A DNA stretch of 20,935 bases from a virus. The notes beneath the pieces are model-generated. The model worked only from the letters and a program-made list of their open reading frames with translations, searched no databases and had not been told where the DNA came from. A program made the translations under genes and the position numbers. The first letter of the stretch is position 1. The number at the start of each line of letters is the position of its first letter. The stretch lies in IMG/VR virus record IMGVR_UViG_3300050014_000694, positions 1 through 20,935 of that record; one strand, given 5' to 3'. Positions 6,416 through 20,935 of this stretch are shown one piece after another.

Positions 6416-9400
6416 TCAGTGCACCACATTCTTGGTCACTCCATAAAGATCCCGCGCCAGGTGGGAAAGCGAAGCCGCAGCCGCGATTGTGTCATTAAAG
6501 ACCCCCATTCCGGAGAGGATCGCTTCCGCGTCCTTGAGCGCGGTACTAACGTCGCCTTCTCCGTCGAACCAACCCGGCACATGCTTCGCCGCAGCGGCAC
6601 CTTGGGAGACGTTGGAAAACAGATTGCCAGAGGGTTGGTACTCCCCGAACGCCTTGAATACCGCGCCTTGCACCAGATCCCCAAAAACCGGGATGCCTTG
6701 CAGCGGGCCTGTGAGCGCAGAGAGGGCCAGTCGCCGGGATCCCCAGTTCTTTTCATCAAACCATTTGTCGTCCTTCCCTTCGTCCTTGAGATCCCTCACC
6801 ACGGCCCGCACCAGCGATGCCCCGAGCCCACCCACCAGCCAGGCCACAGCGAGCGCCCGAGCCTTGCGGGCAGCGCTGGCGTCCGGATTCGCCAGCTGCC
6901 ATGCGGCATAAGCCAGTTTCTGCCGTCCTTCAGAAGAGAATGCCCACACCAGCTTCATAATGGGGTTGGTGGATGTCGCTTCAAAAAGCGAGCGGGCCCC
7001 GGGTCGCGTTGGTTGCGCGATACGGTCCGTGATGCGTTCCGCCGATTGCAGGGCAAACGCTTCCGCTGTTTCTGCTGTGAGGCCGTGTTCACGGGCAACC
7101 TTGCGTTGGTAATCATGCACGATAGCGAAGGACCCGGCGGTAAACAGCGCGTCCGCGCCGCCAATGAGATTGCCGAGCCGGGCGATTTGATGCGTCAGCA
7201 CGTTGGGCCGCGCTGAGTGCATTCCTTCCATTGCCTGCCTAACCACGGGCGGCAGCTCCTGCAAGCGGCGTTGGATGTACTCGCTGCGAATCGCTTCCCC
7301 CCACCCGAGTTGACCAGTGAACAGCATTCCCAGCCGCTTGGCAAAAGACACGGTGGGCATTTCCGCCAATGCCGCCCCGAGCTGCACGGATTGAATTGCC
7401 AGCACACTGGCCCGTCCCACCAGCGCCATGGACGCCGCGCGGTTTGTGTTGCGGTTGAGTTGCTTGTTGAACGCCAGATGGGCCGCCGCATCGCGAGTGC
7501 CGCCTTGCGCAAAGTAATCCACCCAAGCCCGCAATACCCCGAGCCCCTCTTCTCCGGCGCTCGCTTGCACGGAGTTTCCCACGTCCCGCCGATTCAGCAG
7601 CGCCATGGCTTCCGAGGCGAAGCCCGCATAAGCGATGAAGTGTTCCATCTGCTTGGTGTGACCGATATAGGTTTGCAGCGCATCCCTAAAATCCGGTTCA
7701 GCCACGGCGCTTTGCGAGCGATTCCGCAGGCTTCCAGGTGTGACCGATGTCCCATTCATGGAGAACCCGCTCACTGGGTCCACCATCTGCCCGGCTGCCG
7801 CTTGTTGCGGTTTGACCGTGATCGGGCTGTAATTCTTGTGGTGCGGCATGTTCACCCCGTAAAGCCCGCGAAACACCGTGTTGATCCGCTCGTATTCCGC
7901 CGCGTAACGCTCGATGAGGTGCAGACGCACCGCTTTGGCTTCCGGCGTGATTTGGCTCTCGATTGCATCCATGTCCGCTTGCCGGTAATGCCACTCACCG
8001 ACCGGCTTTCCTGTGTCATCCAACACGCCTTCCATGTGCCTCTTGCCATCGTCCTGCCGCCACATCATTGAGGCAGCTATCGCTTGCAGTTGGGTGAAGG
8101 TTTCAGTCTTCCCGTTCCAGAGGATGATTTGAATATCGTTCTTAACCCCCATGTCATACCGCAGGATCTCACCCTTGAGCCTGGAGCCCGCCAGTGAGGT
8201 GAACAAGTCCTCCAGCGCCACCATGGACGCGTTGATTGAATCGCTCTTGCGATACGAGGCATTGCGTTCCGCGTCATTCAATGAATTGGCCTCCACGGAG
8301 TTTTCGCCGAACACAAAGTGCAGCACATGTTCAAAGCTGAGCAGGGATACCAGATTCTTTTTCCACCCCCCCTTGAGAGAGTTTTCCTCCAGCACCTTTT
8401 TCTTGCGCTCTTCCTTGTCTCCCGTGGTTCCGAGACGGTTCACGTCGCCTATCAAAGCCCCACGCGCTTTTTCCCGCCTCTCCGCACGCTTTGACCATAG
8501 AATTTTAGCGGCCATATACCCGCCTGCAAACATCTTGTCCGCTTCCAGAAATGCCGATTCGCGCCGGCCCGCATCTGCCTTGGACCAGTTCCCCACCAAG
8601 CGAACCATATTTGCCGCCATCGTGTAATGCGCGGCATCCTCCGGCGAAGTGTCCGCGTGTTCTGCCAAACCGTCCAGCCTGCCTGCTTCAGCTTCCGTTT
8701 GTTTGGCGTCCATGAACATTGCCGCTTCGATCAGCCGGAAAATATCGTGAATCTCAGGAGTGAGTTTGCCCGTGGGCTTTTCCCCGGGTGCGTCCTTGGT
8801 TGGTTTGGACCGTTTAAGAAGGTCGCGAAACTCTGCGTCATAGCTTTTGCGCATCCAGCTTTCCAATTCCTTGTCCGCTGCCGCTAGTTTTTCCCGCAGA
8901 TAATCCAGCCGCGCGTCATCGCTACCCAGCCGCGCCATTTGGGTGTATCCACCCAGCTTCCCACGAATCTCGGGCGGAAGCGCCGTCATGATGGCATCCA
9001 TCGCCACCAACGCCCGCAGGATTTCCACCTTTGGACTGTAGTTTTCCTTTTGATTTCCCGTCTCATTGGCCAGCCAGGCGTTTGCTTCCTCCTTGGCCTT
9101 GGCTTGCGCTTCCTTCATTTTGCCTACCATGGCCTGTTCCTGCCGCAGAAGGTTCCACATGGCATCCGCTGTGGGTTCCTTGATTAAATGCGCATCAAAC
9201 AATTCCTGTGCCGCTTGGTCCGGCATCAGCGTCCCACCAAAAACCGCGCGCGAAATCCCGTCGGCCCCGTCATACTCCCCGGCCCGGTGCAGGCGGAACA
9301 TATCCGGATGATCCTTGAGCGCCTGTGTCTTGCTCATGATCCGTCCGCGCAAATGAGAATCGGGGTCCGCCAGCAGCTGGTGACCAGGCTGTGCCTTGAT

Positions 9401-12400
9401 CCGCGTCAAATCCTCGTCACTCAAAATCCCGTAGTGCCTTCCCCACACCTCCCCGGCCAATTCTTCCGCCCGCATCGCTTCGCGCATCGCCGCCTCCTTC
9501 AGCAAACTTTTGCCCGGGCGCTTGCCTCCGGCCAGCAACTCCAGCCGCTCATTCACGAGCTTCAGCGACTCGAAGTTGCGCGCTACCTTGCTCATTGCCT
9601 GGACGCGGCGCAACGGGTCTTTGATCCTCCGGATCGCATCCCCCATCATGAACCCAGCCAGGTCTGCCGGGCCGATGGAAAACGCGGTATCCTTGCCCTT
9701 GGCAAACCTTTGGGAAATCACCGCGCGGGCTTCCGTCTCACCGGGCAATGTCACCATGCCCTCGAATCTCACATCATCACCAAACGCCTGGTTGTGCAGG
9801 GCCCAGCGTTGGAGATATTTACCGCCGTCCTCACCCTGCGCGCCAAACAAACCGGGCTTGCTCAGTTTAACCACGCGCCCCGACGTCTCGTCGTAAAGCA
9901 CCACATGCTCGCCGCCACGCGGAGCGTCGGAACCGCCTAAGGCTTGGATCGGTCCGGGTTCGAGGACGCGTCCAGAACGCTTCGCCCATTCCATGATTCC
10001 GGCATAACCGACGAGTTCTCGCCCAAGTTTCCGCCGCTTTTCTCCATCTGCGCGTACGCCTTCCGCGCCGACACGCGGCTCTTGTCCGGTGATTGCTTCA
10101 AGGATTGTTTTTGGGTTGCGAACTCGCTCATCGCCGACAGTGTTTGCTTTGGTTGTAGAGGAGTCAAGAGGTAAGATTATCGCGGGAACCCCGATGGAAA
10201 ACGGAATATCCATGTCTTCCGAGCTGCCGCTCGTGTAAATATCCGCTGCCGCCTTTTCAACCGCCGCGTCATGTTCCGCCTGAGCGTCAGTTCCTAGCAG
10301 TTTATTCAAGTAACCCTCGTACCTCGCCTTATCAAATATCCCTTCCCGCTCCGCTTTCCTGAGCGCAAGCGCCCGTTGCAGGGAAAGGCCCCAATGCGCG
10401 CGCACCGCATTTAGGAACGCTGTGAACTTCCGCGCTGCCTCCGGTGCCAGCTTGGCAATAGCGTTCAGATTTCGCGTGATAAAGCCGGGCTTAAGAGTGA
10501 GCGGTCCGCCCTTGCCCTTGCGCGAACGCAGGATTTCCATTTCCCCAATATGACCGCAGGCCTCGTCAAGCATCGTGTCGGTGATTTCCGCGTCCGCCAG
10601 GTTCTTTGGCAGGAAGCGCAATTGCTGGGTGCTGCGGGCATCGCCCTTGCTCCACTTCCCGTTCAGAACCGTGTCGAGCGAGCGCAGCACCGCGATTTCA
10701 TCCTCGCGGGTGAGCCTGCCCGCCGCGCGCGCATCGCGCCGCAGCCGGTGAAACGTCTCGTGAAACACATCCGTCACGCTGGAACCGGCAAACAGGCGCT
10801 CCACGGGCGCGCGCTGGTCGGATGCCGACACGCTGGCACCGAGAATGCTTTGCGCAATCGATCCGTCGCCGCCGGCCATGCGTTCCTTGAGCTCGATTTG
10901 TTCCGCGTAGCGTTTTGCGTTGCGCGGATCTTCCGTCGCCGCCTTGGCTTCCGTCATCATGTTGGCCAACTCCAGACTCACCGAGGCGTCTTCTTCCCCT
11001 TTACCCAGGGCGCGCGCTTGCTGTGCCGCTTCCATCATTGTCCCCACATAGGCGATATGATCGGCGCTAAAATCATCCATCGCCGTAGTGTGGGTCTGTA
11101 CGATCTTGAGCGCTCCAGCCGCATCCGGAGAAGCTCCGATTTCCTCCCCGCTGTCCCGGTCCCGCACGCTCCATCCCGCAGCCGTGTGCACCAGGTCGGG
11201 CAATACTCCCGCCGCCTTTCCTTCCTGCGCCAGCAACAAGCCTCCCACTTGCGCTTTCACCAGGGTGTCCACTGCCGCCCGGGCTTCTGCGCTGTGTGGA
11301 TCCGCTGCCAGCATGCCTACATCCACCGCCCGGTTGAGTGAGCTTTGCCCCTTGGCCGCCGCCGCGTGAATGGCTGCCGCGTGATCCTTGCGCATGCCCA
11401 GGGCCGCCAGTTCTTCCGGAGTTGCCTTAGCGAAGGCCCCCGCCCGCGCTTCTTGCGATACCCCGCCCGCCGCGCCGAGGATGGCCAGAGGAAGCATGGA
11501 AACGAAGATGCTGAAGGATTGACCCCAGAAGCCGTCCAGCACGCCGTCCTTGCCCGTCCAGCGCACATCCGGCACATCCGCGTCCAGCGCGTTGCCGATG
11601 TCTTGGGTCAAAGGCACCATAAGGTTTTGAACTTGCTCGATCGCGGTTTCCTCCACCCCACCAACCAAGGATCTTGCAGCACCGCGCAACAGGCGGGTTT
11701 TGATTTTGTCCCCCATGGCACCCAACGTCTTTCCCAGAATTGGCAGCTTGCCCAGCCACAGAGAAGCTTCCAGCTTTTCCAGCGCCGCTTGCGGTATAGC
11801 CAAATAGGGTGCCCATTGTTCTGCGCGGGTGCTCGCGTCGGCCTCACTCATTCCTGATTGCCGAAGTCCATTGCGCAAATCGTCGTAAGCCTGTCCCTGC
11901 ATCGACAGATAGATCAGCGGCACGCCTGCAAACGGGATCGCCGCTTCCGCGGTGGATGCCAATGCACCCGGAATGCCATACAGCCCGCTTTCCACCAGCC
12001 CCGGCGCACCGGTCCGCCAGGCGGATTTCATCGGGTTGTAGGCATTCTGTTCAATCCGCCTCACATCCGAGGCGAAGTTCTTGCGTGCCATGAAATCGGA
12101 CCGAGCCTTATCAGCGATCGTCTTTGCCTTGGCGTCCTGCCCGCTGGTTGCCGTCATCACTTGCCCGATGCCACCAGGGATCGGCATCCCGCTGAACATG
12201 TTCATTACACCCGCTTCGAAAGCGCTGCTTGCCAGGTTATCCACATCACGCCCGCCTTGCTTGGCCAAATTGGCAAAAAATCCGGCCTTCTCTTCCTTGG
12301 GAAACGCCTTGGCCACCAGTCCCAGTGCGTTCATGAAGTTTTCCCGCTGACCTTCCGGTAATTGGCCATAGACGTCGAATGCCGTGGCGGCCGCGTCCCG

Positions 12401-13252
12401 TGATCCGGCTTCCGTGAATACCGCCTTCACTCCCGTGACCGTCCCATAAAGCCCGGTGAACAGGTTTTTTGCCAGCGCTTGAGAAGCGGTTCCAAGCACC
12501 TCGCTGGCGGTTCCGGCACCGCCTTGGGTCATCTTGGACCACACTTGTTGCAGTTGCGGTGCGAAGGGTTGCAGAATCTCCCGGCCTGCCATTTCTGCCG
12601 CGTGAAATTGCTCGTGATAATCCGCTTCCGCTTCGGGCCGGTAACCCGGCATTGCCTTAATGCTTTCGCGAGTGCTCTTCCAGTCCTGCGGGCTTGCCCC
12701 TGGTTGGATGCCGGCAATCACCGCCGTGTTCCATCCGTTGTCATGCAGGTACTCGCCCAGCGCCTTGTCATCCTTGCGTTGTGTATGATCCCTGAGAATC
12801 TCCGCGTGAAAGGCATCCTCGCTTTCCGCTCCCTTGCCATCAAACAACTGATTAGCCACCGTCACCCGCAATAGGTGCCTATCCAGTCCGCGCACGGGAA
12901 CCGGTTCCCCTCCATTGTGAAGAGCCATGAACGCGTCATTAATCGCCAGTCGTTGGCCTTCCTTCACGGAGCGCGCAAAACTCAGATCTCTGGCTTTGAA
13001 ATGCGCGTCAGGATCAGCTACGATCTTGTCAAACGTATCCTGTGCCTTGGTCTGCCACTCCGCTTGCGAAGCCGCCGTTTCCCGCGCCTGCACATCCCAC
13101 GTGTTTTCCCCGAAGGCTTCCACCATCGCAGGTGCTGCCGCGGATTGCGGGATTCCCACCGAGGCATCCAGCACGGGAGAAGCATCAGGAAGGGCAAGTT
13201 GAGCGTCCAGCGAAGGCGCTACATTGGATTGGAACGGTAGGATGGTTGCCAT
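6416..13252 (-). CDS. giant polyvalent internal virion protein (gp16 position) with metallopeptidase-like and kinase-like regions
   Basis: At 2278 residues this fills the slot of T7 gp16, the large ejected protein, but is far longer than gp16. Hydrophobic segments lie at about 426-450, 577-597 and 2133-2150. About 820-905 is a gluzincin-like peptidase region with H831-E-T-F-H835 and a later candidate ligand E897 (MLDEACGH). About 1048-1188 matches the N-terminal half of the kinase found in polyvalent proteins: GGEHVVLYDETSGRVVKL with K1129, then YLQRWALHNQAFGDDVRFEG and AVISQRF. The C-lobe motifs are absent. FSIG motifs at 1018-1021 and 1191-1194 bracket the kinase region. About 1460-1500 is charged. 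The end (about 2095-2278) resembles the conserved C-terminal region of large polyvalent phage proteins. It probably enters the host with the DNA and acts early. The start overlaps the lysozyme gene by 34 bases and lacks a clear Shine-Dalgarno site. Confidence 0.8.
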   Translation of the reverse strand: MATILPFQSNVAPSLDAQLALPDASPVLDASVGIPQSAAAPAMVEAFGENTWDVQARETAASQAEWQTKAQDTFDKIVADPDAHFKARDLSFARSVKEGQRLAINDAFMALHNGGEPVPVRGLDRHLLRVTVANQLFDGKGAESEDAFHAEILRDHTQRKDDKALGEYLHDNGWNTAVIAGIQPGASPQDWKSTRESIKAMPGYRPEAEADYHEQFHAAEMAGREILQPFAPQLQQVWSKMTQGGAGTASEVLGTASQALAKNLFTGLYGTVTGVKAVFTEAGSRDAAATAFDVYGQLPEGQRENFMNALGLVAKAFPKEEKAGFFANLAKQGGRDVDNLASSAFEAGVMNMFSGMPIPGGIGQVMTATSGQDAKAKTIADKARSDFMARKNFASDVRRIEQNAYNPMKSAWRTGAPGLVESGLYGIPGALASTAEAAIPFAGVPLIYLSMQGQAYDDLRNGLRQSGMSEADASTRAEQWAPYLAIPQAALEKLEASLWLGKLPILGKTLGAMGDKIKTRLLRGAARSLVGGVEETAIEQVQNLMVPLTQDIGNALDADVPDVRWTGKDGVLDGFWGQSFSIFVSMLPLAILGAAGGVSQEARAGAFAKATPEELAALGMRKDHAAAIHAAAAKGQSSLNRAVDVGMLAADPHSAEARAAVDTLVKAQVGGLLLAQEGKAAGVLPDLVHTAAGWSVRDRDSGEEIGASPDAAGALKIVQTHTTAMDDFSADHIAYVGTMMEAAQQARALGKGEEDASVSLELANMMTEAKAATEDPRNAKRYAEQIELKERMAGGDGSIAQSILGASVSASDQRAPVERLFAGSSVTDVFHETFHRLRRDARAAGRLTREDEIAVLRSLDTVLNGKWSKGDARSTQQLRFLPKNLADAEITDTMLDEACGHIGEMEILRSRKGKGGPLTLKPGFITRNLNAIAKLAPEAARKFTAFLNAVRAHWGLSLQRALALRKAEREGIFDKARYEGYLNKLLGTDAQAEHDAAVEKAAADIYTSGSSEDMDIPFSIGVPAIILPLDSSTTKANTVGDERVRNPKTILEAITGQEPRVGAEGVRADGEKRRKLGRELVGYAGIMEWAKRSGRVLEPGPIQALGGSDAPRGGEHVVLYDETSGRVVKLSKPGLFGAQGEDGGKYLQRWALHNQAFGDDVRFEGMVTLPGETEARAVISQRFAKGKDTAFSIGPADLAGFMMGDAIRRIKDPLRRVQAMSKVARNFESLKLVNERLELLAGGKRPGKSLLKEAAMREAMRAEELAGEVWGRHYGILSDEDLTRIKAQPGHQLLADPDSHLRGRIMSKTQALKDHPDMFRLHRAGEYDGADGISRAVFGGTLMPDQAAQELFDAHLIKEPTADAMWNLLRQEQAMVGKMKEAQAKAKEEANAWLANETGNQKENYSPKVEILRALVAMDAIMTALPPEIRGKLGGYTQMARLGSDDARLDYLREKLAAADKELESWMRKSYDAEFRDLLKRSKPTKDAPGEKPTGKLTPEIHDIFRLIEAAMFMDAKQTEAEAGRLDGLAEHADTSPEDAAHYTMAANMVRLVGNWSKADAGRRESAFLEADKMFAGGYMAAKILWSKRAERREKARGALIGDVNRLGTTGDKEERKKKVLEENSLKGGWKKNLVSLLSFEHVLHFVFGENSVEANSLNDAERNASYRKSDSINASMVALEDLFTSLAGSRLKGEILRYDMGVKNDIQIILWNGKTETFTQLQAIAASMMWRQDDGKRHMEGVLDDTGKPVGEWHYRQADMDAIESQITPEAKAVRLHLIERYAAEYERINTVFRGLYGVNMPHHKNYSPITVKPQQAAAGQMVDPVSGFSMNGTSVTPGSLRNRSQSAVAEPDFRDALQTYIGHTKQMEHFIAYAGFASEAMALLNRRDVGNSVQASAGEEGLGVLRAWVDYFAQGGTRDAAAHLAFNKQLNRNTNRAASMALVGRASVLAIQSVQLGAALAEMPTVSFAKRLGMLFTGQLGWGEAIRSEYIQRRLQELPPVVRQAMEGMHSARPNVLTHQIARLGNLIGGADALFTAGSFAIVHDYQRKVAREHGLTAETAEAFALQSAERITDRIAQPTRPGARSLFEATSTNPIMKLVWAFSSEGRQKLAYAAWQLANPDASAARKARALAVAWLVGGLGASLVRAVVRDLKDEGKDDKWFDEKNWGSRRLALSALTGPLQGIPVFGDLVQGAVFKAFGEYQPSGNLFSNVSQGAAAAKHVPGWFDGEGDVSTALKDAEAILSGMGVFNDTIAAAASLSHLARDLYGVTKNVVH

Positions 13253-15408
13253 GGTTGAATTTTCAGTGGATTCTTGGCAACCGGACTGGGTGCAGTTGGT
13301 ACGCTTGCGGCCTTCCCGGCGTAGCCATTGAGGAAGATCGCCTGTTCTGCCGCTCGCCTGGCCTCGAGTCCCGGCAGGCGCTCACCTCCTGCGTGGCGAT
13401 ACAAGGGCAGCGTGGCCGCGATTTCCGCTTTACTGCGGGTCCCACCATTCAACAGCGAGTCAAGATGTCCGGTGTTGAAATCAAAGCTCGTGAGCGCGTC
13501 CACTTCGTTCGGCGTGAGTCCCAGCTGGTATTCCGTGTTTGCTTTCTCCACCCGCCCCCGGTGCATCGCCAGTTCCGAAGCGAGTCGCTTCTCTGCTTCC
13601 GCCTGGTTGATAACCTCGCCCTGTTTGGACCGGGTGCCATAGCCAATGCTCCATTGATGCACGTCCCAATACGCAGTTCGAAAGAACCCCCCAGGCGCGC
13701 CGCCCGCTTCGAATTGCTTCACCGTATCAATCAGATTGGATGCAGGAACCGAGTCGTTGCCAGCACCTATAGGCTTGGCCCGGGTTTCGTAAGTCCCAGC
13801 CTGCAACCGCTTGCGGGTTTCCTCCCCTGCCAACTCAAACACTTGTTGGTCGATTTCCTTGGACGATGCCTTGGGGTTGACTTTCAACCAGCTTGCCAAT
13901 TCCGTTTTTGCCAGTCCGAGCGCTTCCTGTGCCCTGAGTTTTTCAGTAATCGCCGCGTCCGCCGCCTCCGGGTCGATCCAATCCACCTTTGTCGTTCCAT
14001 TCAGAATTGCATCAGCCGTGGCCGCCACCAACCCGCCGGCCGTGGCCTTGTCCGAGTTGCCGCGTTTTTCCCATAGGCTTTGAAACATTTCCTTGCGAGC
14101 CGCGTCGTTTGGCACCGCGTTCATGGTCGATCCCTTGGCGGTAATGATTGTTTGAACTTCGGTGGGTGAAAATCCGAGCGAGGCAAGCTTTTCTTCAGAG
14201 CGCAGAAACCCGGCGTCAATAAACCGCTGGGTGTGGTACTCGCTTTCCACAGTTCCTTTCAGATTACCAAAGCGCCCGTCTTTGGCTGCCGCGTCCAGGG
14301 ACTTCATGGCCGCCTGTGCATGCGTCGTGATTTCATCCAGCTTCTGAGCCCGGGCGTCCTTAATGTTTTTTTCCAGCTCAACGCGAATCGCGCCCTCTGG
14401 CAGACTGCGCACCGCGCCGTCCATCTTGGCAAACTGGCTGTCATACCCATCCGTCACCGGATTGTAATCCGCTAGTGCAGCCGTCACGGCACCCACCACT
14501 TGGTTTTGATATTCTGGCGTGGCTCGGCGTTGCTTTTCCGCGTCGGATTGATTCTTAGCCAATGCGTCCTTGAGATCCGCCAGCACCGCAGGACGCAAAC
14601 CTGCGCCGATCTCATCAATTTGTGCCGGCGTGGTGATATAGTCGGTCGCCATCCCGTCATGAATCGCCGAAATCAGATCATAGGTCTTTTCCCTAACGGC
14701 GGTTTTCGCCTGTCGTTGCAGCGTCATCACGCTTTCCGGAGTGGCTGCCGGGTGTTGTTTCAGGTACTCTGGATCCGCCAGTGCCTTTTCCGCGCCCAGC
14801 GGATCGCGCAGGATCGCCTGTTGAGCTTCCCGGTAATCGAAGTGGTACGCCACCTTGCGTTGGATAGCGTCCATTTCCTCCGGTGTCTTTGCCCCTGTGG
14901 CCCGCATCCGTTCCACCACCCCCAGCGCCGATGCCTGGTCCGGTGCCGCCTCGATCTCATTGCCGAAGGCGGTGTCCGCCCGCTTCTCAGCCAGTCGCGC
15001 CGCATCCTCCCCCGCCGCGATGGTCGCCCGGGAAACAAACTCCCCGGCATGCAGCGCCAGCCGGTCCCGCACGGCGGGGGGCATGTCCGGGGTCACCAGG
15101 GAGTTTTGCGCGCCAGCCAGAAAGGTTTTCGTCTTGGCCAGGCGTGCCGCCGGGTCCTGTTCGTTTTGCAGCCCCAGCTGGAATGCCGAGTAATCCCCGG
15201 CCAGCTGCTGCCGCGCCTCGCTTTCCACCCGCGCGTTTTCGATTTGTTGCGCCTTGAGTGCCGTGGTCTGGAAGTGCTCGCCCAGGCTCGCCAGGCCCTG
15301 CGCCAGCGGCCCGAGGGCCCGCGCGGGAGCAGCCGCCACCCCGGCATCGGCGAAGGGCATGCCGATGGCAGTCTGTTGCAGAGCGGGTGTGTCTGGAATG
15401 CGGATCAT
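13219..15408 (-). CDS. internal virion protein (gp15-like) with C-terminal GH24 lysozyme domain
   Basis: This 729-residue protein is close in length to T7 gp15 and sits in the same gene order. Residues 1-550 are largely helical, Ala/Gln/Glu-rich and without a recognised domain. Residues about 556-695 form a T4-type lysozyme (GH24) domain: F566-E567-AGG, YWDVHQWSIGYG with D582 and S587 where T4 lysozyme has its catalytic Thr, then LTPNEVDALTSFDFNTG (631-647) and RRAAEQAIFLNG (684-695). It would open a local hole in peptidoglycan during DNA ejection. The tail (about 696-729) is Pro/Ser-rich. The ATG overlaps the upstream stop as ATGA (15408-15405), and the 3' end overlaps the giant gene by 34 bases. 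Confidence 0.85.
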   Translation of the reverse strand: MIRIPDTPALQQTAIGMPFADAGVAAAPARALGPLAQGLASLGEHFQTTALKAQQIENARVESEARQQLAGDYSAFQLGLQNEQDPAARLAKTKTFLAGAQNSLVTPDMPPAVRDRLALHAGEFVSRATIAAGEDAARLAEKRADTAFGNEIEAAPDQASALGVVERMRATGAKTPEEMDAIQRKVAYHFDYREAQQAILRDPLGAEKALADPEYLKQHPAATPESVMTLQRQAKTAVREKTYDLISAIHDGMATDYITTPAQIDEIGAGLRPAVLADLKDALAKNQSDAEKQRRATPEYQNQVVGAVTAALADYNPVTDGYDSQFAKMDGAVRSLPEGAIRVELEKNIKDARAQKLDEITTHAQAAMKSLDAAAKDGRFGNLKGTVESEYHTQRFIDAGFLRSEEKLASLGFSPTEVQTIITAKGSTMNAVPNDAARKEMFQSLWEKRGNSDKATAGGLVAATADAILNGTTKVDWIDPEAADAAITEKLRAQEALGLAKTELASWLKVNPKASSKEIDQQVFELAGEETRKRLQAGTYETRAKPIGAGNDSVPASNLIDTVKQFEAGGAPGGFFRTAYWDVHQWSIGYGTRSKQGEVINQAEAEKRLASELAMHRGRVEKANTEYQLGLTPNEVDALTSFDFNTGHLDSLLNGGTRSKAEIAATLPLYRHAGGERLPGLEARRAAEQAIFLNGYAGKAASVPTAPSPVAKNPLKIQPWQPSYRSNPM

Positions 15409-15890
15409 GGTAAAGTGCCGTTATATTTGTGGGTGTCGTACATCGATGCTGCTTGGCCGAATCCTTGCAGGCCGGTGCCTGCCGCCGAGAACAGCGAAGC
15501 CTGCTTTTGGGTTGCCCCCTCATAGCGCAGCATCGCCTGCTTCTGCCGGTTGGCTGCAAGCTGCATGTTGGTCGATCGCGCCGCGTCGGAAATGCTGGTT
15601 TGGAACGCGCTTGCCGTGTCGCCGAAGATTTGCAGGGCCGTACCGGTGTCGCTCTGCACCCCGCTCGTGGAAAGCCGCGCGTGGATGGCGCTCAGGTGCC
15701 GGTCCTGGTTCGTGCGCTCGCGGGACACCCCCTGCATGAACTCCGCTTCCTTGTTTTTGCCTTCCGCCGCCAACAGTTGCGCGTTGTAATCCGCCACGGC
15801 ACTCGCTGCCTTCCCCTGCTGCATCTGCGAGTACATCCCTACCCCCGTCGAAACGGCAGAAAACAACAATCCTGTGGCGGCGAGTCCCAT
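15405..15890 (-). CDS. internal virion protein, T7 gp14-like
   Basis: This 161-residue protein starts with a hydrophobic, Gly/Ala-rich segment (MGLAATGLLFSAVSTGVGMY, 1-20) followed by an Ala/Gln-rich helical body with charged stretches (about 22-135). It ends in a Gly/Ala-rich tail. This matches the small core protein gp14 of T7-like phages, which forms a pore in the outer membrane on ejection, and it is followed by a gp15-sized gene. I chose the ATG at 15890 because it opens directly on the hydrophobic segment and lies 17 bases after the previous stop. The open frame continues upstream but only inside the previous gene. The family call rests on composition and position more than on signature residues. 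Confidence 0.7.
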   Translation of the reverse strand: MGLAATGLLFSAVSTGVGMYSQMQQGKAASAVADYNAQLLAAEGKNKEAEFMQGVSRERTNQDRHLSAIHARLSTSGVQSDTGTALQIFGDTASAFQTSISDAARSTNMQLAANRQKQAMLRYEGATQKQASLFSAAGTGLQGFGQAASMYDTHKYNGTLP

Positions 15891-15907
15891 GGCGATCGCC
15901 AGCCTAT

Positions 15908-16339
15908 CTAAGCCGCCCCGCCGATGGGTTTTAACAGGTGGCAAAGCCCGGTTTCCCCGGTGCCGTAGCCATGTTTCACCAATAATCGGTGCATTCCGCT
16001 GTCCATCACCTGCGTGCACAGCAGATCCACCAGCCCCATGGCCGCCGCAATCCGTTCCACAGCATCAATACAATGTTCCACAGCCAGCTTTGCCACCCGT
16101 GGCGAGCTTTTCGGGTTGGATGCCACCCAGGCCACCACACCCACCCCGGAGCCGGTCGCGTCGCAGTACAAAAACGCGCAGGCCAGAGGCTTGCCGCAAT
16201 GCGCGAAAAGCACCCCCACCGTGGGCAGGCGTTGCCGGGGTGGCGGCGTCCCTCCCCGCGCCGTCCAGAATCCCGCAATCGTCGCATAGTCCGCGGAATC
16301 AATCCGCCCGTCCGCCGCCTTCTTAATTTCCCGTATCAT
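15908..16339 (-). CDS. GNAT-like protein in the virion gene block
   Basis: This 143-residue protein has a GNAT-like outline: an N-terminal helix region, a beta-strand pair (VGVLFAHCGKPLACAFLYCDATG, about 42-64), a strand VGVVAWVASNP (66-76), a helix over about 83-100, and the C-terminal pattern DSGMHRLLVKHGYG (about 113-126), where acetyltransferases often have a GF/GY turn. The usual acetyl-CoA loop (Q/R-x-x-G-x-G/A) is not evident, so activity is uncertain. Similar small proteins occur between nozzle and internal core genes in other podoviruses, as I recall. The start overlaps the nozzle stop as ATGA. It may be a structural or scaffold-like derivative and not an enzyme. Confidence 0.5.
   Translation of the reverse strand: MIREIKKAADGRIDSADYATIAGFWTARGGTPPPRQRLPTVGVLFAHCGKPLACAFLYCDATGSGVGVVAWVASNPKSSPRVAKLAVEHCIDAVERIAAAMGLVDLLCTQVMDSGMHRLLVKHGYGTGETGLCHLLKPIGGAA
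15930..15946. repeat. 17-bp exact repeat, copy 2, near the end of the GNAT-like gene
   Basis: Minus-strand CTTTGCCACCTGTTAAA, identical to the copy at 6398-6414. Here it lies 22 bases before the stop of the GNAT-like gene and about 40 bases upstream of the gp14-like start. Confidence 0.85.
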
Positions 16340-19300
16340 GGCTCATGCACTCCCCACCGCAGCACCGCCGCCAGACAGGTGAATGGATAGGCGTCTGCAT
16401 GCCTCATGGAAACCACCAGGTCAGTCACATGCGCCGGGGAAAGTGTCACTGCCAACCAGCCCGTGAAGTCATCCGCCCGCGTGCCCATCAGATCGCCCGT
16501 ATTCGAAAATTGCAAATCGTTCGCCTCGCCGTCATACACCACTTGCCCGCCGCGGCTGCGGTGCAGGTTGAGAACCATTTCCTGTGCCCGCTTCATCCTC
16601 GCGTTGGTGGTGCCCGTGTCTGTCTGCGTGTCGATCGGCAACAACGTCAGTGTGGAGGTCACCGGCAGCCCGATTGTCAGCGTGTCCGGCACCGGGGAAA
16701 GCGTGAAGGTGCTCGAAAATGCCGCCCGCTCCACCAGCAGCACCTGCGCCACCCCATCCACAGTCAGCTCGGAAAAACCCACCAGCGGATCCGCCTGCAA
16801 ATGTGCGGGAAGCGCAAACATCCCGCCCGTCGGCGTCAGCGTCACCCTGGCATCCGCCACCGTGTCCGGCGCACCCGCTTCCCGCGCAGCCTGCCACCCG
16901 GTAGGAAACTTTTCCAGCAACGCGGTGCCACCACGATCCACCACGAAAAACACCTCATCATCCCCCGCCACGCCCGGCAACACCGCCACCGCGCGAAACA
17001 ATCCCGCCAGCGTCGTGTGCCTACTCCAGGCAATCAATTGTTCTCCGCGGTCATGCGCCAGGTGCAGCAGTGTGCCTGCCGTGGTGATACTCCACAGTCC
17101 CGGCGAGCGTACCGCCTGATACGCCGCCGCCACCACCCCGGCCTGCGTGAGGTGTTCCGCGTAGCGGGAAAGATCCTCGCCCGCGTACCCGTCCGCCGAA
17201 AAACTCATTTCCCACACCCGGGCCCCATTGCGTCCCGGGAAAAACAGCGAATCCCCCACCGCCACCGGCTGCAAGGAAGTCGATCCGTACGCCGTGAATT
17301 GCCGCGCCTGGAAGCTCGTGGGCGTCAGCGGCACGTCCGCCGTGTCACTGCCACAGATCCATTCCCCCAGCGGTGTGCCAAGGAACAGCCTCCGTTGAGA
17401 TACCATCCAGTGAATCGGTGCGCTCGCATTCGCCGCCAGCGTCACAAACAACGCGTCCCCGTCCGCCGTCCCCGTCTCGAAGTTGTTCATGTCATCGGAA
17501 GCGCTGGCCCACAGCGATACCGGATTGTTGGGTGTGCTCGCCAACAGCAACCGCCGCTCGTGCAGCGCGATCGAGCGCGGGAATCCCGACACATCGGAAA
17601 ACGCCCCTTGCGCCCAGCGGTGGGTGCTTCCCGATAGCATCGGCGAAACCGCCACCCCTGTCATTTCCGTGGCACTCACGTACCGGTCAAGTAAAGCGTA
17701 ACCCGTCACATACGGCAGGCGCGGAATCAGCACTGCCCGGGGTGATCCTTCCGCCGCAGTGTCATCCAGCTTCGCAAAGCCGATGCGCATCATGGTCGGT
17801 GCGTCTTCGATGCCGCTTTCAGCCACGTTGCGGTCCCCCGTGGATTGCCAGCTGCGCAGCGCCGTCCATGTCACCCCGGCATCAATCGAGCGTTCCAGTG
17901 TGAACGTCCCGCGCCAGGTCCCAAAGGTGAAAAAATCCCAGCCGCCGTCCAGCACGATTTCCGGCGAGCGGTGCCCGTCCATGGCCGGCGTTCCCGCCAG
18001 TTCCACTTGTGAGTCCCCGAGATCCCGCTCCGGAGAGATCCGATAGTACTGTCCCGGCCCGCGTAGCGCCATCGATGAGGAAGACCCATAGGTCACCAGC
18101 AACAGCCAGTAATCCAGCCAATTCGCGCCGGTCCCCGGTTCGTTCGTGTCGGAGGGTTGGTGCCGCACCGTGCAGCGGAAACGCCGCCCGTCGTTGGATA
18201 CCTCATCACCCACCTCAAACCACCCGTAATAGGTGAAGGATTCCGGAGAAACCCCGGTTGCCACCATATCCCAATAAGTTTCCCAGCCTGTGGTTTCCCC
18301 TGGCACGATCGAAATCACGCTTTCGATATGCTCCACCTTGCAGCGGTACACTACGCCAGTGTTGGTTTCCCGGTAGGCTCCCACCTTGCAGGATGCTGTG
18401 TTGTCTGCATCGTAGCTCGCCACGATCGCCCACTTTTCCGCCGTCGGCACATCCTCCGGCGTGAACGATCCAGCGGACGATGTGTGCGAAACGAGACAGA
18501 TCGCCCAATGGTAATGCAAGTGCAGCGTGTCCGTGCCAGGATCCCCAGCCGGAAAAATATCCCATGCGGTATCCACCACGGTCCCTTCGCTGTAGGTCCG
18601 CCACAGCTTGGTCCACCCGTTATCCGTCCGATCCGCCGCAATCAAGGTCACCGGGTCCCCCGTGCCGTACATCTTGCGCCTCCAAAAGCCTTTCCACCCG
18701 CTGCCCACTCCTGGCTTGTTGGTCACCGCGGATGCCGTGTGCCCCACCGTGCAAAACCATTCCGAGGAAACAAAGCACACATCGCCGTAAGCGTACCCAT
18801 GCCCCGCCACCCAGGTAGCCGCCACCGGATTGGATGCCACCGAGTACACCGCCGCGCGGTTGGTATTGGCATCCAGTGTGGGAGCCGCCGTGTAGGCCAT
18901 CCACAACAGCGTCCACGAGGCATCGCTCCACCGGCTCAGCCGCATGGGTGCGCAGGCCGGGTGCGTGATGAACGCCACATCATTGAGCTGCACCACTTGC
19001 ACGTCCCGCAGGCTGGCCGCACTCGCATCCCAATCGTACCCCACCAGGAAATCCAGCGTCGCTTTCACCACCCCCGCAGCAGATAGCACTGTCAACGTGT
19101 CAGGCTGGAACAGCAGCAGGTACTGTTCTCCCGCCGCCGCCACGAACGGCACCAGCGCTAGATTGCCGCCGGCGTCCCCCACATCCGCCACAAACTGCGT
19201 GCCGGGCCGTTTCTGAAACGCCCCGTAGGACATCGGTAAAAAATTCTCCATCCGTTCCGCCCCGCTCGCGTGCTTGGCAAAGTCGGATCGGTGGCGCAAA

Positions 19301-19347
19301 TACGGCGATAACTCGCCCGAGTTGAAGGAAAGCAAACTTTGGTGCAT
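16336..19347 (-). CDS. tail nozzle (tail tubular B-like) protein with four carbohydrate-binding-like repeats
   Basis: This 1003-residue protein would form the distal tail tube, as T7 gp12 does. The N-terminus has the typical opening SFNSGELSPYLRHRSDFAK (6-24) with GAERMENFLPMSYGAFQKRPGTQFV shortly after. The middle and end show the usual nozzle pattern: HERRLLLASTPNNPVSLWAS, LFLGTPLGEWICGS and GARVWEMSFS. Inserted at about residues 177-415 are four units with aromatic ends and a YxC core, recalling CBM5/12: about 177-222 (YGDVCF, WFCTVGHTAS, GWKGFW), 262-306, 319-361 (VYRCKVEH, GWETYW) and 376-415 (FRCTVRH, NWLDYW). The ATG at 19347 begins at the conserved opening and lies four bases after the upstream stop. 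A longer ORF start lies inside that gene. Confidence 0.8.
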   Translation of the reverse strand: MHQSLLSFNSGELSPYLRHRSDFAKHASGAERMENFLPMSYGAFQKRPGTQFVADVGDAGGNLALVPFVAAAGEQYLLLFQPDTLTVLSAAGVVKATLDFLVGYDWDASAASLRDVQVVQLNDVAFITHPACAPMRLSRWSDASWTLLWMAYTAAPTLDANTNRAAVYSVASNPVAATWVAGHGYAYGDVCFVSSEWFCTVGHTASAVTNKPGVGSGWKGFWRRKMYGTGDPVTLIAADRTDNGWTKLWRTYSEGTVVDTAWDIFPAGDPGTDTLHLHYHWAICLVSHTSSAGSFTPEDVPTAEKWAIVASYDADNTASCKVGAYRETNTGVVYRCKVEHIESVISIVPGETTGWETYWDMVATGVSPESFTYYGWFEVGDEVSNDGRRFRCTVRHQPSDTNEPGTGANWLDYWLLLVTYGSSSSMALRGPGQYYRISPERDLGDSQVELAGTPAMDGHRSPEIVLDGGWDFFTFGTWRGTFTLERSIDAGVTWTALRSWQSTGDRNVAESGIEDAPTMMRIGFAKLDDTAAEGSPRAVLIPRLPYVTGYALLDRYVSATEMTGVAVSPMLSGSTHRWAQGAFSDVSGFPRSIALHERRLLLASTPNNPVSLWASASDDMNNFETGTADGDALFVTLAANASAPIHWMVSQRRLFLGTPLGEWICGSDTADVPLTPTSFQARQFTAYGSTSLQPVAVGDSLFFPGRNGARVWEMSFSADGYAGEDLSRYAEHLTQAGVVAAAYQAVRSPGLWSITTAGTLLHLAHDRGEQLIAWSRHTTLAGLFRAVAVLPGVAGDDEVFFVVDRGGTALLEKFPTGWQAAREAGAPDTVADARVTLTPTGGMFALPAHLQADPLVGFSELTVDGVAQVLLVERAAFSSTFTLSPVPDTLTIGLPVTSTLTLLPIDTQTDTGTTNARMKRAQEMVLNLHRSRGGQVVYDGEANDLQFSNTGDLMGTRADDFTGWLAVTLSPAHVTDLVVSMRHADAYPFTCLAAVLRWGVHEP

Positions 19348-19351
19348 GGCT

Positions 19352-19990
19352 TCAGTTGGTGGGGATGTAGGGCGGCCTGCCGTTACCGAAGCGCGCATTC
19401 ACCAGCCCGCTCATGCTCGCCAATTGCCTGGGTCCGAAATTCTCCCCGCTCGCCACCTCCCGCGCGTCCGCTGTCTGCGCCTGCGGCAACGCCAGCGCCT
19501 CCAATCGTTGCAAGGCTGCGTCCCCCAGCGCCGGGTTCTGCGTCACGTCAGGCGCGATCCTTGATGCGAGCTTGTACGCCACCGCGTCCACGAATAGCGC
19601 GTCCCACTCCACCGGCTCCACCGCACTGGACACATACAGGATTTCCAGCGTCGGGTAATCCGCGCTCAACAGCTTCCGCCCCTCGATCGTGAAATCACGG
19701 ATTGGATTGCTTGAATCCCCGGAGGAAAGCCGGATCAACCGCACCAGATCCGCGGGCACCTGCCATGCCGCCGCCCATTCGGAAAGCGGCGCATCCGCCA
19801 ACCTGGAGAGCATCGCTCGCATCGTCGCAAAATTCCATTGGTGCCGCCGCAACAGCGTGTTCACCACTTGGTCCAGGTGCAACCGGCAGCTGCGCGCCTC
19901 CACGCTCGCTTCCGTCTCATACGCCACGATCCGCCGCGCCCCAAGCTCCCCCAGCGCCAGATTGCAAATGTCCGTCTTGCTAGTAATCAT
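19352..19990 (-). CDS. head-to-tail adaptor (tail tubular protein A, gp11-like)
   Basis: This 212-residue protein begins with the well-known adaptor signature KTDICNLALGELGARRI (5-21). It continues with ARSCRLHLDQVVNTLLRRHQWNFA (32-55) and a central region ending in LPQAQTADA (about 173-181). Proteins of this type form the ring joining the portal to the tail nozzle in podoviruses, and the nozzle gene follows after four bases. The start at 19990 is supported by a strong Shine-Dalgarno site six bases upstream. It is the first gene after a terminator, so it opens the tail transcription unit or depends on read-through. Confidence 0.88.
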   Translation of the reverse strand: MITSKTDICNLALGELGARRIVAYETEASVEARSCRLHLDQVVNTLLRRHQWNFATMRAMLSRLADAPLSEWAAAWQVPADLVRLIRLSSGDSSNPIRDFTIEGRKLLSADYPTLEILYVSSAVEPVEWDALFVDAVAYKLASRIAPDVTQNPALGDAALQRLEALALPQAQTADAREVASGENFGPRQLASMSGLVNARFGNGRPPYIPTN

Positions 19991-19996
19991 AATTTT

Positions 19997-20004
19997 CCCT
20001 CTTC
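19997..20004 (-). promoter_or_regulatory. strong Shine-Dalgarno site of the adaptor gene
   Basis: Minus-strand GAAGAGGG six bases before the ATG at 19990. It contrasts with the weak or absent sites before most other genes here. Confidence 0.75.
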
Positions 20005-20016
20005 TTTAAGTCTTTC

Positions 20017-20053
20017 AAAAGAAAACCCCGCCCGCGGATACACACGAGCGGGG
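20017..20053 (-). terminator. Rho-independent terminator between head and tail genes
   Basis: On the minus strand CCCCGCTCG (20053-20045) pairs with CGGGCGGGG (20034-20026), nine positions with a single mismatch around a ten-base loop. TTTTCTTTT follows immediately (20025-20017). It lies about 25 bases past the stop of the capsid-associated gene. Confidence 0.9.
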
Positions 20054-20078
20054 ACCAACACGATTCAATCAGCAGAGT

Positions 20079-20570
20079 TTAGCCCAGCGCCCAGAAGGCG
20101 ATGTTGAAGATCAGCTTGGAATCAGCCGTGTCATTCAGCGTCACCGTGCTGGCGAAGGTTGCAATCACCGTGGTGACGGCGGTATTCACAAACGGGGTTT
20201 TCTGCCCTGCCGGGAGCGTCCCCGAGGAGAGCGTCACCAGCGCGTTGGCGGCCTTCACGTCCAGCGCGTTGGCGTAGCGGGTGGGTGTGTCCGCGTCGCC
20301 GATGCTCAGGTTGCAGGCCGTGTGCACCAGTTCATTCCAGACCGTCGAAAGCGACGGGTCCACAATGGCGCCTTTCGGCACGGTGCACAGGCTGATGATG
20401 TCCGTGGTCACGGGCTTGGTCCCGTTGGTGGCCTTCGGAATGATGAAGGCCACCTTCTGGTAGCGCAACTTGCGGCCTGCGTAAACGTCGGAACCGTAGG
20501 TTGGTGCGGCACTCGAAGCGTTGGCCGCCTGAGTGGTCATATTGTCGGATTTGTAAGTGATCGCTGGCAT
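20079..20570 (-). CDS. small capsid-associated protein (possible head decoration protein)
   Basis: This 163-residue protein is rich in Ala, Thr, Ser and Val, with alternating beta-type segments (VAFIIPK 40-46, TVIATFASTVTLND 133-146, KLIFNIAFWALG 152-163) and no signal peptide or catalytic motif. It lies 44 bases after the major capsid gene and just before a strong terminator, so it is probably co-expressed with the capsid protein at high level. A head decoration or cement protein fits size and position, but I do not recognise the family. The ATG at 20570 lacks a Shine-Dalgarno site; an in-frame ATG ten codons later is the alternative. Confidence 0.55.
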   Translation of the reverse strand: MPAITYKSDNMTTQAANASSAAPTYGSDVYAGRKLRYQKVAFIIPKATNGTKPVTTDIISLCTVPKGAIVDPSLSTVWNELVHTACNLSIGDADTPTRYANALDVKAANALVTLSSGTLPAGQKTPFVNTAVTTVIATFASTVTLNDTADSKLIFNIAFWALG

Positions 20571-20614
20571 GATGTTGCTAGGTTACTTGGTTGTTGTGGT
20601 TGGTTTCAACCGGC

Positions 20615-20935
20615 TCACGTGCCGGCCACGAGGTTGAGGCATTCGATGCGCACCACCTTCTGGTCATCAGACCGGCAGGCGTTCATTGCGTACTCGGTGA
20701 AGAACTGCGTGGCGTTTTTCTTGTCGGGACGCACGGAAACAGTGGTTTGGGCCACCTTCCAGAAATCCAGATAGACCGCATCGCTGGTCCAGATCGCGGC
20801 GTAACGCAGCGTGGTTGAACCGGCTGTGTACGGCAACAGGGTGGAACGCATCCAGTTCACGCCGAGGAAGAACGAGATATTCCCGTTTTCATCCAGCGTG
20901 GGCGGCATGTAGTCCTTGGAGAACAAGCGGTTGCC
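20615..20935 (-). CDS. major capsid protein, C-terminal part (cut by the window edge)
   Basis: Only the last 106 residues are present; the frame is open at the window end, so the true start lies outside. The end carries a pattern I associate with HK97-fold capsid proteins of podoviruses (Phage_capsid_2 type): AVYLDFWKVAQTTVSV followed by RPDKKNATQFFTEYAMNACR and KVVRIEC. The late, highly ordered gene position before a small capsid-associated gene and the tail adaptor agrees. The scaffold and portal genes would be expected upstream, beyond position 20935. Confidence 0.7.
   Translation of the reverse strand, partial: GNRLFSKDYMPPTLDENGNISFFLGVNWMRSTLLPYTAGSTTLRYAAIWTSDAVYLDFWKVAQTTVSVRPDKKNATQFFTEYAMNACRSDDQKVVRIECLNLVAGT

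What the first reader, a model, noticed from the sequence alone, without database searches (positions are those of the whole stretch)
9683..10201. Kinase-like N-lobe without a C-lobe, bracketed by two FSIG motifs
In the giant protein, about residues 1048-1188 match the first half of the kinase domain of polyvalent proteins (nucleotide-pocket lysine candidate K1129, then the YLxRWxLHNxxFGDD and SQRF segments). The catalytic-loop and metal-binding half that normally follows is missing. The break comes exactly where a second FSIG motif (1191-1194) stands; the first FSIG (1018-1021) precedes the region. The frame is intact, so this is an in-frame loss or a deliberate half-domain. FSIG may mark inter-domain joints or protease cut sites, so that the half-kinase could be released as a separate piece.
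Basis: partly seen in the sequence, partly recalled or inferred. Interest (0 to 1): 0.68.

Follow-up and report, generated by a model that had tools for sequence, protein, structure and literature searches.

The report
Broken kinase cassette between swap joints
A giant phage protein, probably injected into bacteria with the viral DNA, carries a slot where different effector domains are swapped in and out between copies of a short peptide, F-S-I-G, and in this phage the slot holds a kinase domain that has lost its catalytic half.

Summary
In the 2278-residue protein at 6416-13252 (minus strand), two FSIG motifs (residues 1018-1021 and 1191-1194) bracket a segment homologous to Kinase-PolyVal. 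A model built from ten complete relatives matches at E 2e-25, but only positions 1-77 of 141, and the missing half is nowhere in the window in six frames. Close relatives (53-56% identical) in a Verrucomicrobiota chromosome are complete and bracketed the same way: FSLG, kinase, FSIG. The window copy lacks about 65 residues holding the D..N catalytic loop and the last aspartate. It is an in-frame deletion ending about five residues before the joint, not a designed half-domain.

FSIG is a general joint. FS[IL]x separates unrelated modules (ART, phosphoribosyltransferase, RadC, MuF_C, LPD3, kinase) in many giant phage proteins. Eight contigs (six different cassette sets) with 97.6-100% identical C-backbones carry 197-806-residue cassettes, and DNA identity restarts exactly at the joint. 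The joint is conserved as protein (serine coded by both TCN and AGY), falls in predicted unstructured linkers, and never occurs inside 38 kinase cores.

So this is a degraded cassette in the exchange slot of a polyvalent protein. Protease release at FSI remains possible but untested. I found no description of the joint motif in the literature searched.

The parts
6416..13252 (-). Giant protein, 2278 aa: N-backbone (1-1017), one cassette slot (1018-1190), C-backbone (1191-2278)
   Evidence: backbone homologues L003, L006-L024
10202..13252 (-). N-backbone, ending ...DMDIP before joint 1 (compare L009/L022 ...DDIP-FSI/FSL)
10748..10762 (-). HExxH (HETFH, residues 831-835), candidate zincin metallopeptidase motif in the N-backbone
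   Evidence: same slot is HEFTH/HEESH in L009, L011, L022, absent from L007 and L014-L021
10190..10201 (-). Joint 1, FSIG (residues 1018-1021)
   Evidence: aligns with FSLG that starts the complete kinase module in L196
9917..10189 (-). Module leader (residues 1022-1112), homologous to the leader of complete kinase modules (PLDPST..., GKRRK)
9686..9919 (-). Kinase-PolyVal N-lobe (residues about 1112-1189): E1115, K1129, FGDD, Q1181
   Evidence: HMM positions 1-77 of 141, E 2e-25; AF2 b-b-aC-b-b core with block-mean pLDDT mostly 60-85
9683..9691 (-). Deletion junction (D1188-A1190): GKD|TA joins where relatives have about 65 more residues
9671..9682 (-). Joint 2, FSIG (residues 1191-1194), first residues of the C-backbone (FSIGPADLAGFMMGDAIRRIKDPLRR)
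   Evidence: compare L007 FSLGNARLSDLMAGDALARVKDPIRR
13219..15408 (-). Neighbour: long virion protein with C-terminal phage lysozyme domain (position of T7 gp15)
15405..16019 (-). Neighbour: internal virion protein (phrog_418; position of T7 gp14)
16336..19990 (-). Neighbours: tail tubular/nozzle proteins (phrog_376, phrog_394)

Best explanation
The segment is one effector cassette in the exchange slot of a podovirus polyvalent protein that is probably ejected into the host with the DNA (gp16-like by gene order). The slot lies between a conserved N-backbone and a conserved C-backbone. It holds zero to several effector modules, and a short peptide joint, [FY]S[IL]x (FSIG here), stands at the start of each module and at the start of the C-backbone. 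Modules are replaced as blocks between these joints. In this phage the slot holds one Kinase-PolyVal module whose catalytic half (about 65 aa) was removed by an internal in-frame deletion just before joint 2, probably between two similar G[RK][DE]-type stretches, so it should no longer phosphorylate. Shown: homology, both joints, truncation, joint-to-joint cassette swapping in relatives, protein-level conservation of the joint. Inferred: ejection, the deletion route, loss of activity, and the joint's job. The joint must at least act as a tolerant linker that keeps modules independent; recognition by a protease in virion or host is the next most likely role.
For: Complete modules FSLG-kinase-FSIG 53-56% identical to the window in genome G285 (L196), with local similarity confined to the module and a few residues before it. 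HMM covers 1-77/141 in the window against the whole domain in most other loci. Complete kinases with FSx on both sides also in L223, L224 and phage L104; no FS[ILV] inside 38 kinase cores. One domain per joint-to-joint interval: LPD3, MuF_C, kinase, kinase in L223; ART, PRTase, RadC in L007. L014-L021: C-backbone 97.6-100% identical, cassettes 197-806 aa, nucleotide identity rises from 0.3-0.8 to 1.0 at the joint's serine codon. Upstream joint in 31 of 55 non-redundant viral ARTs against 0.05 expected; 15 of 15 of those with a readable end also have one downstream; serine codons 28 TCN, 7 AGY. Motif four times enriched elsewhere in such ORFs, not in ORFs with another joint. Both window joints lie in pLDDT<50 linkers. 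Virion-gene neighbourhood.
Against: The giant protein itself matches no Pfam, PHROG or PDB family, so gp16-like rests on gene order. The window kinase is a single sequence, so neither selection on the half-domain nor an assembly error at the junction can be excluded. The viral ART sample was drawn with queries from FSI-bearing phages, so its frequency is not a population estimate. Foldseek finds only weak matches to kinase N-lobes (best E 0.024).
Confidence: 0.82

Rival explanations
1. FSI is a processing site: a protease (phage- or host-encoded, in trans) cuts at each joint in the virion or the new host and releases the modules as separate effectors.
For: Motif conserved at protein level with synonymous serine codons, placed on both sides of modules, in predicted disordered linkers. 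Autoproteolysis of polyvalent proteins is proposed in Iyer 2017. The window has HExxH at 831-835.
Against: No cut has been observed. The cis HExxH motif is absent upstream in 35 of 48 viral ORFs with an FSI joint. The motif does not match known prohead-protease sites (own knowledge).
Confidence: 0.35
2. The half-kinase is a functional pseudokinase or nucleotide-binding module, kept on purpose.
For: The frame is intact; ATP-pocket lysine K1129 and Q1181 are kept; the N-lobe core is predicted with moderate confidence.
Against: The four closest relatives are complete with the same joints; no other open-frame copy cut at this point was found, the other clearly incomplete copies being broken by stops or frame changes (L204, L210, L214).
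Confidence: 0.15
3. FSI is only a DNA recombination site, a short homology at which cassettes cross over, with no role in the protein.
For: In the window both joints share 13 identical bases; identity restarts at the joint in L014-L021.
Against: Between phages the joint keeps its residues while codons vary, including TCN against AGY serine; FSIG, FSLG, YSIG and FSIR are interchangeable.
Confidence: 0.12
4. FSI is simply the first strand of the modules (for example of the ART fold) and no joint at all.
For: Before ARTs it lies at a fixed distance, with A at -1.
Against: It precedes unrelated folds and the backbone itself, and also follows modules; stand-alone kinases lack it.
Confidence: 0.06
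5. The truncation is an assembly or sequencing artefact.
For: A single metagenomic record; the overlapping contig L002 does not reach the junction.
Against: In-frame, 2278 aa intact, joint 2 correctly placed.
Confidence: 0.08

Closest known systems
Kinase-PolyVal (PF18762; Iyer et al. 2017, PMC5512222)
   Same: Leader, glutamate before strand 2, lysine, HNxxFGDD, SQ strand; occurrence in polyvalent proteins of Verrucomicrobiota prophages
   Different: The window copy ends at model position 77 of 141: no D..N loop, no last D; no hit to the Pfam model
Polyvalent proteins of phages (Iyer et al. 2017)
   Same: Giant multi-domain protein beside virion genes; relatives carry ART, kinase, RadC, MuF_C and LPD3 modules; cassette clusters were already noted there for V. 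spinosum
   Different: The FS[IL]x joint delimiting modules is not mentioned in the passages searched (no 'FSI', no 'linker'); the window slot holds only one degraded module
VENN motif of CdiA and similar pre-toxin motifs in polymorphic toxins (e.g. PMC3482391; function from own knowledge)
   Same: A short conserved peptide marks where a conserved carrier ends and an exchangeable effector begins
   Different: Here the joint repeats, several modules are chained, and the carrier resumes after them; no immunity gene logic seen
T7 internal virion proteins gp14/gp15/gp16
   Same: Gene order: phrog_418, lysozyme-bearing protein, then the giant
   Different: No sequence match of the giant to gp16; effector slot in the middle

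Membership tests
Kinase-PolyVal | Match to PF18762 over the Pfam cut-off | tested here: not met
   no match at E 10
Kinase-PolyVal | N-lobe with glutamate before strand 2, lysine, conserved glutamine in last strand | tested here: met
   E1115, K1129, Q1181 align with complete members
Kinase-PolyVal | Phosphotransfer residues (D..N loop and last D) after the insert | tested here: not met
   HMM 78-141 absent in six frames
Kinase-PolyVal | Kinase activity | not testable with these tools
   needs protein
Polyvalent protein | Several disparate domains in one polypeptide | tested here: met
   met in homologues; the window itself has one truncated module plus HExxH
Polyvalent protein | Injected into the host with DNA | not testable with these tools
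   gene order only
Exchange cassette with FSI joints | Same joints bracket different modules on a conserved backbone | tested here: met
Zincin metallopeptidase (MPTase of polyvalent proteins) | HExxH plus downstream third ligand | tested here: inconclusive
   HETFH at 831-835; third ligand not identified

The most novel reading that the evidence does not exclude
Phage polyvalent proteins are polyproteins: FS[IL]x is a common recognition site at which a trans-acting protease frees each effector after ejection, so that any module carrying the joint works in any carrier, and the joint is the rule that makes the effector pool exchangeable across unrelated phages.
Probability: 0.33. Interest if true: 0.85.

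Novelty: new variant of a known kind. Interest (0 to 1): 0.62.

Why it matters
Polyvalent proteins were described as mosaics of domains, without a stated rule for where pieces join. A short joint peptide lets one cut these giants into modules by eye, predict effector boundaries in unannotated phages, and test directly whether the giants are processed. The window itself shows that a cassette can decay inside the slot while joints and frame are kept, so the carrier seems to need the frame but not the effector.

Tried and rejected
Single-sequence scans of viral contigs with the kinase region or the whole giant found nothing; the tail protein gave the first relatives. The C-backbone alignment found nothing in genome contigs. 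A degenerate HNxxFGDD pattern and the kinase alignment A5 found nothing in viral contigs. PF18762 in 22 related viral records: none. tblastn against named phages: none. The idea that the cis HExxH peptidase cuts FSI was weakened by its absence from many FSI-bearing relatives. Foldseek matches of both models are weak and used only as consistent with a kinase N-lobe.

Full report
What is there. The window is an IMG/VR virus record of 20,935 bases. All main genes lie on the minus strand: integrase (390-1520), M15 peptidase (1722-2336), tail fibre-like genes, the giant protein (6416-13252), a protein with a C-terminal lysozyme domain (13219-15408), an internal virion protein of phrog_418 (15405-16019), tail tubular proteins (16336-19990). 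Gene order therefore puts the giant where T7-like phages keep gp16, which is ejected; the giant itself matches no Pfam, PHROG or PDB family.

The observation. FSIG occurs exactly twice, at residues 1018 and 1191, with identical codons. Pfam's Kinase-PolyVal does not hit, so the claim needed better relatives. PF18762 was sought in 388 Verrucomicrobiota genomes. Genome G285 gave two copies of a complete module 53-56% identical to the window segment: FSLG-PAPSLIRPLDPST...GKRRKHG...GGEHKVLYDEESQRVIKLTKPGLFG...YLERWALHNRAFGDDVAFEGLVTLPGE...AVISQRYAEGRDAT, then about 65 further residues with DTVTPGN and VIDLQV, ending GRETS-FSIG. The window runs ...AVISQRFAKGKDTA-FSIG. It thus shares the first joint, the leader, the N-lobe and the second joint, and lacks the catalytic remainder. 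A profile from ten complete kinases matches the window at E 2e-25 over model positions 1-77 of 141 only, and finds nothing else in any of six frames, while most other loci carry the whole domain. Other clearly incomplete copies (L204, L210, L214) are broken by stops or frame changes. The window's is an in-frame internal deletion. The edges (EGRDAT on one side, GRETS on the other, GKDTA in the window) suggest recombination between two similar short stretches; that route is inference.

A note on the family. Iyer et al. 2017 (PMC5512222) state that polyvalent kinases as a family have lost the C-terminal subdomain of ordinary kinases but keep the phosphotransfer residues.

The joints. The tail gene led to relatives. 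In L003 two FSIG motifs bracket a phosphoribosyltransferase instead of a kinase; in L006 the slot is empty with a single YSLS. The C-backbone found 18 more loci. L007 has six FSIG/FSLG motifs separating ART, phosphoribosyltransferase and RadC modules before the C-backbone restart FSLGNARLSDLM...RVKDPIRRAQAMSK, which is homologous to the window's FSIGPADLAGFM...RIKDPLRRVQAMSK. L014-L021 have C-backbones 97.6-100% identical over 800 aa but cassettes of 197 to 806 aa with one to four modules; L016/L017 carry the same cassettes and so do L020/L021, so these are eight contigs with six different sets. Nucleotide identity is 0.3-0.8 before the joint and 1.0 from its serine codon on. In a Verrucomicrobiota chromosome (L223) the intervals between FSL motifs hold exactly LPD3, MuF_C, kinase and kinase. 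Complete kinases with FSx on both sides occur in L174, L189, L223, L224 and phage L104, and the motif never occurs inside 38 kinase cores of 5340 residues.

Is it more than chance, and is it protein or DNA? ART modules were searched with a query that did not contain the motif. Among 55 non-redundant viral ORFs, 31 have [FY]S[IV] exactly five residues before the ART start, against 0.05 expected. Of 15 with that joint and a recognisable ART end, all 15 have another FS[ILV] within about 20 residues after the end. The serine is coded by TCN in 28 and AGY in 7, so the peptide is what is kept. Outside the ART joint the motif is four times more frequent than in shuffled sequence in these ORFs, and not enriched in ORFs that use a different joint. 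The sample is biased towards relatives of the query and is not a frequency estimate. Both window joints fall in stretches of pLDDT below 50 in the AlphaFold model, whose kinase core (strand-strand-helix-strand-strand) has moderate confidence. Fold matches are to kinase N-lobes but weak.

How it works. Best reading: an ejected carrier with an internal exchange slot; modules enter and leave as blocks between FSI joints; this phage's single module is a decayed kinase. The joint is at least a permissive linker. Whether it is also cut is open. A HExxH motif (HETFH, residues 831-835) sits at a slot conserved in L009, L011 and L022, but 35 of 48 viral ORFs with an FSI joint lack HExxH in the preceding 700 residues, so a cis zincin cannot be the general cutter; a trans protease is not excluded.

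Host. The tail protein has relatives in 38 of 388 Verrucomicrobiota genomes; the best, at 39% identity, is about 12 kb upstream of the kinase-bearing giant in G285. That giant is also preceded by a lysozyme-bearing protein like the window's. A Verrucomicrobiota host is likely, though no other phylum was tested as control.

Novelty. Polyvalent proteins, the kinase family and cassette clusters are known. In the papers searched no inter-module joint motif is described; most subscription papers are not in the library. I rate it a new variant of a known kind.

Noticed in passing
L192:670-3390, L226:3689-6721, L227:2675-5611 (Verrucomicrobiota genomes G285, G338, G246): A Kinase-PolyVal domain (36-42 bits, over cut-off) is inserted in the middle of the adenylation domain of what looks like the chromosomal NAD+-dependent DNA ligase LigA (Pfam DNA_ligase_aden interrupted near profile position 98; OB, zinc finger and HHH domains follow). 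L187 (G282) looks alike from sequence.
   Followed up: partly
window 10748-10762 (-): HExxH (HETFH) at residues 831-835 of the giant, a candidate zincin peptidase conserved in L009, L011, L022 but absent from L007 and L014-L021.
   Followed up: partly
L025-L085 (bacterial genomes), residues just before the ART start: In 27 of 58 non-redundant chromosomal ARTs the slot taken by FSI in phages holds LYQ/LFQ/FFQ (Q at -3), perhaps a second joint class.
   Followed up: partly
L196:5322-7937 (-): Next to the main giant gene (7960-13023) lies an 872-aa partial duplicate of its cassette end with diverged modules, like an orphan cassette store.
   Followed up: no
window 13937-20935: Contig IMGVR_UViG_3300050015_000190 (L002) is 100% identical over 6999 bases and extends the phage by about 8.4 kb beyond the window's right end.
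   Followed up: no
L182, L180: A second, distant kinase-like family (FLDKGAESxVY...VLKVRKLS...LAKIVYHNYLFPKDAY) is flagged by PF18762 over the curated cut-off but scarcely by the model from complete kinases.
   Followed up: no
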